Source: Candidatus Tepidiaquacella proteinivora
GTDB taxonomy: Bacteria; Bacteroidota; Ignavibacteria; Tepidaquicellales; Tepidaquicellaceae
Reading direction: 5' to 3'
NCBI GenBank assembly: GCA_013348845.1
Contig: CP054675.1
Coordinates: 1,807,501-1,871,500 of the forward strand
Length of the DNA: 64,000 nucleotides
The translations under genes were made by a program, and so were the position numbers. Of this stretch, positions 643 to 5,764 are shown piece after piece. The notes under the pieces are model-generated. The model saw only the letters and a program-made list of their open reading frames with translations. It had not been told where the DNA came from and searched no databases. Each line of letters starts with the position of its first letter. Positions within the stretch are counted from its first letter, which is position 1.

Positions 643-2634
<1,992 letters not shown>

Positions 2635-2645
2635 TTATTTTCTTT

Positions 2646-3017
2646 TTAAATAAATACAATTTCTCTAATCGGTTTAAAATATTTTTTGTTCAGTTGATTT
2701 TTTTTATTATCACTTTTTAAACTTTCTGCATATGATTTTTCTAAATTTTCATTAAATATCCTTATAATTTCCTGTTTCTTTATCGATAATTCGTAACGCC
2801 ATATAGCATTTTCAACATTAACAAATAATTTACCTCGTTTTATGACCACTGGTTTTGAAAACTTTGATATGGGTTCGCCTACTGAGTCTTTCCATATTGA
2901 GTTTAACATCAGGTTGTATAAACCTGTATTAAGACCAAGATCATTAAGAAATATCTCAATCTCATTTTTTAAAAGTACCGTTTTATTTGCTCTCTTTTTT
3001 AAATCAGATGATTTCAA
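2646..3017 (-). CDS. DciA-like DUF721 protein
   Basis: Small basic protein of 123 residues resembling DUF721/DciA proteins, which act as replicative-helicase operators or loaders in many bacteria lacking DnaC. The recognisable core is the segment around residues 35-90: a helix with LMLNSIWKDSVGEPISKFSKP, then VVIKRGKLFVNVENAIWRYELS. The start lies 4 bp after the recF stop and the gene precedes gyrB, a common setting for DUF721 genes. The C-terminus is lysine/asparagine-rich. The family assignment rests on the core pattern and the context; the helicase role is family knowledge, not visible here. Confidence 0.75.
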   Translation of the reverse strand: MKSSDLKKRANKTVLLKNEIEIFLNDLGLNTGLYNLMLNSIWKDSVGEPISKFSKPVVIKRGKLFVNVENAIWRYELSIKKQEIIRIFNENLEKSYAESLKSDNKKNQLNKKYFKPIREIVFI

Positions 3018-3021
3018 TTAT

Positions 3022-4209
3022 TTAATTTATTGATTTAACTTTATTATTTTCAACCTTAAAAATTTTAATTACTGACGAATTTAAAAAATTTTTAAATTCA
3101 TCTATATGATTAAGATCTGTTGAAGTTACAAACACCTGGCTAAAATTTGGTATGTGGGACATCAATTTCTTTACTCTGATCGGGTCAAGTTCAGACATAA
3201 CATCATCAAGTAATAAAATAGGATTAGTTCCGAGTTTATCTTTAATAAAATTATACTCTGATAGTTTCAAAGCAATTAAAAATGTTTTATGTTCACCTTG
3301 TGAAGCAAAACTTTTCAATTCTATTAATTGCTCTTTATTTTCTAATGTTTTTCTTTTAAGTAAGAATATATAATCATCTCTATGAGGACCAATAAGCGTT
3401 AGTTTTCTTGATATTTCCTTACTTTTTATTTCATCAAACATTTCTTTAAATATGTCTTTTATGTTTTCCTTTTGACTATCGGGTGAATCTTTTAAAGTAT
3501 CTGTGTTATTTAAAGTTGAAGAATATGTTATTATTGGCAATTCATTTTCTGTGGAGAGATGTTTATAATTCCTGATTAAGTATTTTTCAAATTCAGCAAG
3601 GAAAAGTTTTCTACGATAGATTATTTCTGCGGATATATCAGCCATAAGTTCATTATAACTATCAAGCAATTTATTGAATTCAAATTGTGAAATATTAAGA
3701 TTGCTTTCTTTTAAAAGCGTGTTTTTTAACTTAAGAATTTTATTTAATTTTTTTAGGTAATCTAAGTATAAAGGATTTATCTGAGAAAAAATTATATCAA
3801 AAAACTTTCTCCTTTCAGAAGGATTTCCATATGTAATATTTATGCTGTGAGGAGTTAAATAAACAAGAGGAAACTTCCCGAAAACATTACCTGAAAAGCC
3901 ATTAACTCTTTCTTTATTTAGAGAAAAAAATTTCTTTCCGGTATAATAATTTAATGAAAGCAAATATTCGTTAGTAAATTCATTTTGGTATTGTCCCTCA
4001 ATGAAAAAATTATCTTTGCCTAAAAGAATACAATCAGATTCTTTTGAATTTAAAAAACTTTTTCCAAACGATAGAAAAGTCATTGCTTCAAGAATATTTG
4101 TTTTTCCAACACCATTATTTCCGAATATATAATTGAATTCATCACTAAATATGATTTTTTCATTTTCATAATTCCTGAAATTGTTCATATATAAACTTTT
4201 TATAACCAT
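3022..4209 (-). CDS. recF: DNA replication/repair protein RecF
   Basis: SMC-like ATPase that helps load RecA at single-strand gaps through RecFOR. The 395 residues start MVIKSLYMNNFRNYENEKI, with Walker A FGNNGVGKTN at about residues 29-38. The ABC-type signature region is FASQGEHKTFLIALKLSEY, and the Walker B/D-loop is NPILLLDDVMSELDP. Slightly longer than the usual 360-370, mostly in the middle coiled region. It follows dnaN by about 100 bp and precedes the dciA-like gene by 4 bp, the usual dnaN-recF order. Confidence 0.96.
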   Translation of the reverse strand: MVIKSLYMNNFRNYENEKIIFSDEFNYIFGNNGVGKTNILEAMTFLSFGKSFLNSKESDCILLGKDNFFIEGQYQNEFTNEYLLSLNYYTGKKFFSLNKERVNGFSGNVFGKFPLVYLTPHSINITYGNPSERRKFFDIIFSQINPLYLDYLKKLNKILKLKNTLLKESNLNISQFEFNKLLDSYNELMADISAEIIYRRKLFLAEFEKYLIRNYKHLSTENELPIITYSSTLNNTDTLKDSPDSQKENIKDIFKEMFDEIKSKEISRKLTLIGPHRDDYIFLLKRKTLENKEQLIELKSFASQGEHKTFLIALKLSEYNFIKDKLGTNPILLLDDVMSELDPIRVKKLMSHIPNFSQVFVTSTDLNHIDEFKNFLNSSVIKIFKVENNKVKSIN

Positions 4210-4312
4210 AAATTCTATATAAAAATGTTAAAGAAAAGTTAATAAATAACAATTAACTTTTTTCTCCTTTTGTTTATCAGTATAAAACATTTATGATAAT
4301 ACACTCATAAAA

Positions 4313-5764
4313 TTACCCCACCCTAACGGGCATAACTAATTCCATATAGTCTTCATTATTTTCCTGTACCGATGGAGTAATTACACAGGCTTTTGATGGG
4401 CTGCTAAATGTCATTAATATTTCAGGGCTTTCTAAAACCGAGAAGCAATCAATTAAATAATGTACATTAAAGGAAATTGAAAACGGATTTTTATCGAAAT
4501 CCGCTTCATTATCTTCAAGACTGATAAAATTACAATCTATAACTTCTTCTACGTCTGCTCCAATTTCGGGATTATCTGCTTTAATGTTAATAGTGGAATT
4601 TTTTATTTCAAACTTTACTCTTTTTGTTGCTGGGTCAACGAAGATTGATGCTCGCTTCAAAGAATTTAAAAAATCAGTTCGGCTGACTTTTAATTTTTTA
4701 TCATTGCTTTTAGGTATTACAGTTTCATAATTTGGAAATGTATCTTCTATTAATTTTGAATAAAATTCAGTTGTATCTGTTGATAGCTTAATTAATGTTT
4801 CATCATATTCTATTGTGCTTTCTTCTCTACCTATTAATTTTGTTATTATATCTGCTGCTTTTAAAGCCACGATAATTTTACTCTCTTTAATCTCTGTGGT
4901 TTCATAATCTCTTAATGAAAACTTGCTGAGCCTGAAACCATCAGTTGAAACAAATCTAAGCTCATCTTTTCTTATATCAAAAAGTATTCCGGTCATGTTT
5001 CTCTTTGTTTCCTCCATACTCACGGCATGCCTGACTTTCGAAATAATTCTTCTAAGCGTTGTATCCTTTATCCTTATGGATTCTAATTGGTTTTTATCTT
5101 CTATGCTTGGAAAATCTTCTGTTGATTGTCCAAAGAAGGAATATTTTCCATTTGAAGAAGTTATTGTAACCTTGCCTTTCTCATTAGTTTCAAACTTTAT
5201 TTTTTTCTTTGTCATCAATTTACTTAAAGTGCTCTCGTTTTTCTCATATAATTTTTCAATTGCATTTTTTAGCTTTTCATTTGCACTTGCAAGTTCATGT
5301 TTTCCTTCGTTTATATATATTTGTTGATTGTTTCCTAATTTTTCTAACAGTGATAATCTTACCTCATTCTCAAAAACCCCTGTAAAGACTAAACTTTTTG
5401 TTTTATATATGTAAGTAATTTTTCCTTTAAGTAGCTCATATAAATTCCCCTCCTTATTTAATAAATCATAGTCATCAGAATTAAACTCTGTCTCTACGAC
5501 AATATTATCATATTTTGCGACGAGTAGTCTTAACAAATCAAGTAATTTTTTAGCTGGAATTGCGCACTCTCCATCTTCGTGTCCTTCTACCGGTACTTTT
5601 ACCCTTATAAAGTTTTCTAAGTCTGTAGCTTGTAATGTTAGTTCGTTTCCCTTTAATTCAAATAAAACGTTTTCAAGAATCGGAAGTGCAGAACGACTGG
5701 GAATAACATAACTTAATTTAGTTAAGTAATTTACGAAATTCTCAACAGTAATGTTAAATTTCAT
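4313..5764 (-). CDS. dnaN: DNA polymerase III beta sliding clamp, with a large insertion
   Basis: Ring-shaped processivity clamp for the replicative polymerase. The start is typical (MKFNITVENFVNYL, then IPSRSALPILENVLFE) and the end is the usual (ELVMPVRVG). The protein is 483 residues where the family is normally about 365-380. Domain I reads normally to about residue 93 (LLDLLRLLVAKYDNIVVETE) and resumes at about 193 (EKGKVTITSSNGKYSFFGQSTEDFP). The roughly 100 residues between are an insertion in the first domain's beta hairpin, lysine/glutamate-rich and helical in its second half. It is in frame with no stop, and shows none of the splice motifs of an intein. The rest of the clamp looks intact. 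Confidence 0.95.
   Translation of the reverse strand: MKFNITVENFVNYLTKLSYVIPSRSALPILENVLFELKGNELTLQATDLENFIRVKVPVEGHEDGECAIPAKKLLDLLRLLVAKYDNIVVETEFNSDDYDLLNKEGNLYELLKGKITYIYKTKSLVFTGVFENEVRLSLLEKLGNNQQIYINEGKHELASANEKLKNAIEKLYEKNESTLSKLMTKKKIKFETNEKGKVTITSSNGKYSFFGQSTEDFPSIEDKNQLESIRIKDTTLRRIISKVRHAVSMEETKRNMTGILFDIRKDELRFVSTDGFRLSKFSLRDYETTEIKESKIIVALKAADIITKLIGREESTIEYDETLIKLSTDTTEFYSKLIEDTFPNYETVIPKSNDKKLKVSRTDFLNSLKRASIFVDPATKRVKFEIKNSTINIKADNPEIGADVEEVIDCNFISLEDNEADFDKNPFSISFNVHYLIDCFSVLESPEILMTFSSPSKACVITPSVQENNEDYMELVMPVRVG

What the first reader, a model, noticed from the sequence alone, without database searches (positions are those of the whole stretch)
5186..5482. Roughly 100-residue insertion in the DnaN sliding clamp
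The beta clamp is a size-constrained ring (365-380 residues). This one has 483. All extra length sits in one place in domain I, between the strand ending VVETE and the strand beginning KGKVTITSS. The insertion is mostly charged and helical and lies at a hairpin likely to project from the ring. It could bind a partner specific to this lineage.
Basis: partly seen in the sequence, partly recalled or inferred. Interest (0 to 1): 0.6.

Follow-up and report, generated by a model that had tools for sequence, protein, structure and literature searches.

The report
Wandering protein module inside DNA clamp
The ring protein that keeps DNA polymerase on DNA carries, in some Ignavibacteria, an extra folded domain that belongs to an unnamed small protein module found scattered through unrelated proteins of three bacterial phyla, and in two distant genomes the DNA for that module looks like a tiny transposable element that inserts into genes without breaking their reading frame.

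Summary
The insertion is real but was misplaced by about 30 bases. DnaN (window 4313-5764, minus) has ~101 extra residues (84-184, window 5213-5515) in domain I, between helix alpha2 and the next strand; the 'VVETE' strand lies inside it. It occurs in the only DnaN of 15 of 29 genomes (7 of 16 genera) of one Ignavibacteria family. It is predicted as a confident, self-contained beta-alpha-beta-beta-alpha-alpha domain and matches no Pfam, NCBIfam or PDB entry.

It is not lineage-specific in origin. It belongs to an unnamed ~60-residue module that recurs in unrelated proteins of Bacteroidota, Acidobacteriota and Planctomycetota (lipoproteins, ResIII helicases, an OLD-like ATPase, a UPF0324 transporter, Cas7, a TonB receptor). 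A profile of planctomycetal copies alone aligns with the DnaN inserts at 98% probability, E 1.5e-13. In two planctomycetal genomes the module's DNA is a 199-bp element with terminal inverted repeats; with its 5-bp target duplication it adds exactly 68 codons.

Best reading: an old, vertically inherited copy of this module sits in a tolerant loop of the clamp. Its fold is kept and its surface drifts, so a conserved partner is unsupported. Entry by transposition is inferred; no terminal repeats remain in dnaN.

The parts
4313..5764 (-). dnaN, DNA polymerase III beta subunit (sliding clamp), 483 aa, the only dnaN of the genome
   Evidence: TIGR00663 E 7.7e-73; PF00712/PF02767/PF02768; one match in G000
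5516..5554 (-). clamp helix alpha2 of domain I (residues 71-83), the last clamp element before the insertion; the model extends it to residue 87
   Evidence: alignment with uninserted relatives; model DSSP H71-87
5213..5515 (-). the insertion, residues 84-184 (boundaries +-3 residues)
   Evidence: MAFFT alignment of 30 DnaN, 15 with and 15 without
5486..5503 (-). first strand of the inserted domain (residues 88-93, IVVETE)
   Evidence: model E89-93, E8-12 of the insert alone
5240..5461 (-). part that matches the recurring module profile built from planctomycetal copies only (residues 102-175)
   Evidence: hmmsearch with A7; hhalign A7 vs DnaN inserts prob 98, E 1.5e-13
5381..5419 (-). beta hairpin of the module (residues 116-128, ITYIYKTKSLVFT); Y118 and L125 conserved, G129 follows
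   Evidence: model; conservation
5210..5368 (-). helical hairpin of the inserted domain (residues 133-185), longer than in other module copies
   Evidence: model H133-152, H156-185
5156..5203 (-). clamp strands that follow the insertion (residues 188-203), the hairpin that in E. coli carries rim residues E93 and L98
   Evidence: alignment; E93/L98 rim contact from PMC3022782; equivalence by hand alignment
3022..4209 (-). recF, neighbour used as a tree marker
   Evidence: order dnaN-recF-DUF721-gyrB kept in the family
643..2619 (-). gyrB, neighbour used as a tree marker

Best explanation
The extra ~100 residues are one copy of a self-folding module (beta-alpha-beta-beta-alpha-alpha, ~60-70 residues, here enlarged by a longer helical hairpin) that recurs in unrelated bacterial proteins. 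An ancestor within this Ignavibacteria family acquired it in the loop between helix alpha2 and strand beta5 of clamp domain I. That loop lies on the edge of the ring, away from the partner-binding cleft (domains II/III), so ring closure, loading and polymerase binding go on, and the copy has been inherited with losses (or a second gain) since. Its present effect on the clamp is most likely that of a tolerated peripheral domain: selection keeps the fold but not a surface. SHOWN: site, fold prediction, homology to the module, distribution, purifying selection on the insert, weakly conserved surface. SHOWN for two planctomycetal genomes: the module is carried by a 199-bp element with ~15-bp terminal inverted repeats and 5-bp target duplications that adds exactly 68 codons. 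INFERRED: that dnaN received its copy through such a frame-preserving element, and that the copy has no essential function of its own.
For: Homology: profiles that contain no DnaN sequence recover the DnaN inserts (in one search all 15 score above 50 shuffles each, best E 6.2e-8, window 3.3e-4 in 3744 ORFs); planctomycetal-only profile vs DnaN-insert-only profile: hhalign prob 98, E 1.5e-13. Most top matches of the mixed module profile in the 29 family genomes are the DnaN inserts (7 of 8; that profile held one DnaN row, L013). Fold: full clamp pLDDT 88.9 with insert blocks 80-94; insert alone pLDDT 88, pTM 0.80, same secondary structure. Recurrence: PBP_like_2 lipoproteins, ResIII helicases, OLD-like_TOPRIM ATPase, TPR lipoproteins, ABC_toxin_N protein, UPF0324/PF03601 transporter, TonB receptor, metallophosphoesterase, NMT1, HD, pentapeptide proteins, Cas7 split by it; 12 copies in one 2.5-Mb genome. 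Element: copies in different host genes 83-85% identical over ~204 nt, ending at module borders; terminal inverted repeats; 19 convergent repeat pairs under 300 bp vs 0 in divergent order, 5-bp target duplications, four TIR-bearing module copies all 199 bp; every DNA-level module hit in 737 kb in the module's own frame. Selection: insert dN/dS 0.06-0.18 vs core 0.01-0.04 where dS is not saturated; conservation almost only at core positions. Canonical clamp motifs intact.
Against: No terminal inverted repeats remain at the dnaN insert borders in the 10 inserts tested, so transposition into dnaN is not shown. TIR-bearing copies were seen only in two genomes of another phylum. No transposase with the same repeats was found. 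dN/dS well below 1 means the insert is not free to vary, so it may do something. K182 and K188 near the C-terminal junction are conserved.
Confidence: 0.6

Rival explanations
1. Docking platform: the domain projects from the ring near the dimer interface and binds a protein of this clade, which is thereby recruited behind or beside the polymerase.
For: Separate folded domain at a ring edge; kept under purifying selection in the single essential clamp of 15 genomes; the strand after it leads to the rim hairpin that TLS polymerases contact in E. coli (PMC3022782).
Against: No conserved surface patch is visible in the alignment; very fast divergence, e.g. 45% insert identity where the rest is 97%; DinB presence and full-length DnaE size do not differ between genomes with and without it.
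Confidence: 0.2
2. Ordinary domain shuffling: the module is a promiscuous small domain spread by recombination and gene transfer; the planctomycetal element is a later or separate capture, and no mobile element was involved in dnaN.
For: No inverted repeats at dnaN; many copies in Bacteroidota and Acidobacteriota sit in fixed places of protein families, e.g. the same position in ResIII helicases of several genera.
Against: Does not by itself explain insertion into interior loops of unrelated compact proteins with frame kept; the TIR-bearing copies are exactly 199 bp and add 68 codons with the target duplication.
Confidence: 0.3
3. Ring tuning: the domain packs against domain III of the other protomer or limits access to the rim, changing ring stability or translesion polymerase exchange.
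For: Site follows pore-lining R80 (PMC5042465) and precedes the rim strand with E93/L98 near the dimer interface.
Against: No conserved surface residues that could form such a contact except around K182/K188; DinB is kept in genomes with the insert.
Confidence: 0.12
4. Hypervariable shield: the insert diversifies under attack by phage proteins that target the clamp.
For: Sharp local divergence confined to the insert between L008 and L011.
Against: dN/dS in the unsaturated pairs is 0.06-0.18, not above 1; in L008/L011 synonymous divergence is also raised in the insert, so local recombination is as good an explanation.
Confidence: 0.06

Closest known systems
Bacterial DnaN / beta sliding clamp (TIGR00663; PF00712, PF02767, PF02768)
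   Same: Three clamp domains, canonical motifs, dnaN-recF-DUF721-gyrB neighbourhood; VIA-align Z 36-38 to solved clamps over ~360 residues
   Different: An additional ~101-residue folded domain in the alpha2-beta5 loop of domain I; matching PDB clamp entries are 366-410 aa, apart from tagged and fusion constructs
Rickettsia palindromic elements (RPE; Ogata 2000, 2002, as summarised in PMC10969869)
   Same: Small repeated DNA elements that sit in frame inside unrelated protein-coding genes and add a peptide
   Different: RPEs are ~150 bp and described from Rickettsia in that account; the planctomycetal element is 199 bp with ~15-bp TIRs and 5-bp target duplications, encodes a domain with a confident predicted fold (in the DnaN homologue), and relatives of that domain occur in three phyla
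Prokaryotic MITEs
   Same: Short non-autonomous elements with terminal inverted repeats and target duplications; the same TIRs flank short non-coding elements in the same genomes
   Different: This version carries a conserved open frame whose length plus target duplication is a multiple of three; the dnaN copy itself has no TIRs left
BON / ring-building motifs (YscD PF21934) and KH-like folds
   Same: Similar order of strands and helices; weak Pfam matches of 3 module copies (E 0.0013) and weak Foldseek matches to a KH domain and secretins
   Different: No significant match in sequence or structure; resemblance only

Membership tests
DnaN sliding clamp (TIGR00663) | Full-length match above the curated cut-off | tested here: met
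   245.6 bits vs cut-off 137.65
DnaN sliding clamp (TIGR00663) | Three domains of the clamp fold | tested here: met
   Pfam domains; model aligns over 1-482 to solved clamps, Z 36-38
DnaN sliding clamp (TIGR00663) | Closed homodimeric ring on DNA | not testable with these tools
   No dimer prediction offered
Recurring unnamed module (this report) | Sequence similarity to copies in unrelated proteins, found without DnaN | tested here: met
   hhalign prob 98, E 1.5e-13; all 15 inserts above shuffles
Recurring unnamed module (this report) | Same fold as copies in other proteins | not tested
MITE / RPE-type frame-preserving element (planctomycetal copies) | Terminal inverted repeats | tested here: met
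   L257 and L236 16/18, L248 14/18, 0 of 200 shuffles each; GAGACYTCTGAAAAA pairs; older copies decayed
MITE / RPE-type frame-preserving element (planctomycetal copies) | Target-site duplication | tested here: met
   5 bp in module-bearing L236 and L237 (2 of 4 TIR-bearing module copies) and in most of the non-coding elements with the same TIRs
MITE / RPE-type frame-preserving element (planctomycetal copies) | Insertion in frame inside genes | tested here: met
   199 + 5 = 204 nt = 68 codons; every module hit in its own frame
MITE / RPE-type element (the dnaN insert itself) | Terminal inverted repeats at the borders | tested here: not met
   9-12 of 16, as in shuffles, for 10 inserts; so the dnaN insert is not filed as such an element, only its domain as a homologue
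YscD BON-like domain (PF21934) | Clear Pfam match of the DnaN insert | tested here: not met
   best E 0.0013 in 3 of 13 module copies; not listed for any DnaN insert

The most novel reading that the evidence does not exclude
A frame-preserving transposable element that encodes a foldable protein domain has spread this domain through unrelated proteins in at least three phyla, and one copy became a permanent part of the essential replication clamp of a group of Ignavibacteria.
Probability: 0.5. Interest if true: 0.85.

Novelty: new variant of a known kind. Interest (0 to 1): 0.7.

Why it matters
It shows that the size-constrained clamp can carry a fourth, unrelated domain in nature. It also links that domain to an uncatalogued module found in many proteins (replication, defence, transport, envelope). 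The planctomycetal element offers a concrete route by which new folded domains can be dropped into working proteins without breaking the frame, a question so far tied mainly to Rickettsia. The prediction is directly testable: the module should fold alone and be tolerated in loops of other proteins.

Tried and rejected
Known family for the insert: none in Pfam, PHROGs, NCBIfam or PDB sequences (only weak chance-level matches). Known fold: Foldseek PDB best E 0.21, BFVD best E 0.087, VIA-align best Z 6.0, all in the range of common arrangements. Assembly error or frameshift: rejected, 15 genomes. Insert as a single clade trait: rejected on gyrB+recF (AU p 0.0018), because genus g7 branches apart; either ancient gain with losses or two gains. 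Co-change with DinB or DnaE: none seen (only these two partners were tried). DNA-binding by charge: insert is acidic. Matches to OsmC proteins, DnaK tails and others among the weak hits are chance or convergent hairpin-helix motifs. No module hit at E 1e-4 in 249 genomes of the phylum of an alphaproteobacterial MAG (negative without positive control). tblastn of single module copies against plasmids found nothing. Search for a transposase between matching TIRs 300-3500 bp apart: none convincing. First tree attempts with IQ-TREE failed or timed out. A viral scan with the module alignment could not be run because no stretch was conserved enough.

Full report
WHAT WAS CLAIMED.

CHECK. The ORF at 4313-5764 (minus) is DnaN. 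The window comes from a 2.4-Mb Ignavibacteria genome (family neighbours are named Ignavibacteria or Bacteroidetes MAGs). Alignment with 29 relatives, 15 of them uninserted, puts the insertion at residues ~84-184, window ~5213-5515. The finding's coordinates are shifted by about 30 nt, and the strand VVETE that it took as clamp is inside the insert. The true site is the loop after helix alpha2 of domain I, before KKIKFETN. In E. coli numbering this is about 82-86 (hand alignment), just after the pore-lining R80 (PMC5042465) and just before the hairpin with rim residues E93 and L98 that Pol IV and V contact (PMC3022782). From the antiparallel arrangement of the two helices of each clamp domain (general knowledge), I infer that the loop opens on the face opposite the partner clefts; this is not tested.

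DISTRIBUTION. Every one of 29 genomes of the family has one DnaN; 15 genomes (7 genera) have the insert, 14 (9 genera) do not. Other families of the order and class lack it, and among 296 genomes of the phylum only the window's own genus gave strong insert matches. On gyrB plus recF the inserted genomes are not one clade (AU p 0.0018): genus g7 branches apart from the rest. The insert is homologous and at the same site in both groups, so an early gain with losses, or transfer between them, is more likely than two unrelated insertions. Length also varies: 78 residues in genus g16 (L013), which is closest to the module described below, and 99-101 elsewhere.

FOLD. AlphaFold2 on a 27-sequence alignment gives a clamp with pLDDT 88.9, and the insert blocks score 80-94. 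The insert alone folds with pLDDT 88 and pTM 0.80 into the same elements: strand, two short helices, beta hairpin, helical hairpin. No significant match in PDB or BFVD.

THE MODULE. A search of the phylum with the 15 inserts found weak but consistent matches in unrelated proteins with the pattern LP..L..K..YD....L...G.MT..E...L..L......A...L...S. Because those were found through DnaN, I tested the link with sequences found without it. A profile of non-DnaN copies found new copies elsewhere, including TPR lipoproteins and a UPF0324 transporter in genomes of the phylum of an Acidobacteria MAG. A profile of only these second-generation copies scored all 15 DnaN inserts above every shuffle (best E 5.3e-6; window 0.005). 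The mixed profile then found 29 of 294 genomes of the phylum of a Planctomycetota MAG positive, one with 12 copies in 2.5 Mb. A profile of planctomycetal copies alone against DnaN inserts alone gives hhalign probability 98 and E 1.5e-13, and again all inserts beat shuffles. Hosts include PBP_like_2 and TPR lipoproteins, ResIII helicases, an OLD-like ATPase (between ATPase and TOPRIM), a protein with ABC_toxin_N and PA14 domains, TonB receptor, metallophosphoesterases, NMT1, HD and pentapeptide proteins, and a Cas7 whose domain is interrupted by it. No Pfam or NCBIfam model covers the module.

THE ELEMENT. In planctomycetal genomes G853 and G921, copies in different genes are up to 85% identical in DNA over ~204 nt, and the similarity stops at the module's borders. 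The less decayed copies have terminal inverted repeats GAGACYTCTGAAAAA. In 737 kb this repeat forms 19 convergent pairs under 300 bp and none in the opposite order; most pairs carry 5-bp target duplications. Four pairs are module copies, each exactly 199 bp (two with an intact 5-bp duplication); the rest are non-coding elements of 88-260 bp, nearly all outside open frames. 199 + 5 = 204 nt = 68 codons. All module hits lie in their own frame, nearly all in long ORFs. So in these genomes the module travels, or travelled, as a frame-preserving miniature element, comparable with Rickettsia palindromic elements (PMC10969869). I found no matching transposase, and no such repeats at the dnaN borders. 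For dnaN, transposition is therefore an inference from homology of the domain.

WHAT IT DOES IN DnaN. Where synonymous change is not saturated, dN/dS of the insert is 0.06-0.18 against 0.01-0.04 for the rest. Conserved positions are hydrophobic core or the glycine after the hairpin, plus lysines at the junction. Surface residues vary freely, charge is mildly negative, and DinB presence and DnaE size do not follow the insert. L008 and L011 are 97% identical outside the insert and 45% inside; raised synonymous divergence there leaves recombination open. I conclude that the fold is maintained and the surface is not, which fits a tolerated peripheral domain better than a conserved docking site. 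A fast-evolving partner remains possible.

LIMITS. No dimer model, no coordinates, no wet data. The number of phyla is from samples. Genome handles of other phyla are unnamed beyond the record that led to them. Module searches were made with small, hand-made profiles. In steps before the members were selected through DnaN, which is why only those later tests are used as proof of homology.

Noticed in passing
L236:2910-3108, L237:9832-10030, L257:327-525, L223:17880-18078 (genomes G853, G921): 199-bp elements with terminal inverted repeats GAGACYTCTGAAAAA; L236 and L237 have intact 5-bp target duplications. They carry the module in frame inside host genes; the same repeats flank short mostly intergenic elements (e.g. 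L243:3090-3219, L244:9208-9338, L258:6131-6272).
   Followed up: partly
L232:10578, L245:19162, L253:9566, L257:19221, L260:11556: Solitary perfect copies of the same 15-bp repeat without a partner within 300 bp; might mark decayed or larger elements or the missing autonomous transposon.
   Followed up: partly
L008 and L011, DnaN residues ~80-184: Two close relatives are 97% identical in the rest of DnaN but 45% identical in the insert, with raised synonymous divergence too: local recombination or very fast change.
   Followed up: partly
L025, L027, L028 (genus g2): DnaN of 408-409 aa with a different, ~30-residue extra stretch near the C-terminal part (window residues 445/446), without the domain I insert.
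   Followed up: no
L219:645-2126: Cas7-family protein (PF05107) of 494 aa whose domain is interrupted by a stretch that contains the module (residues 146-192).
   Followed up: no
L164:302-2242: OLD-like ATPase with the module between its ATPase and TOPRIM domains.
   Followed up: no
L099 and L163 (genome G260): Large ORFs (2427 aa, with ABC_toxin_N and PA14 domains, and 3566 aa) that hold the module; two tandem copies in the larger one.
   Followed up: no
window 643-5764: Gene order dnaN-recF-DUF721-gyrB, conserved across the family and the sister family.
   Followed up: partly
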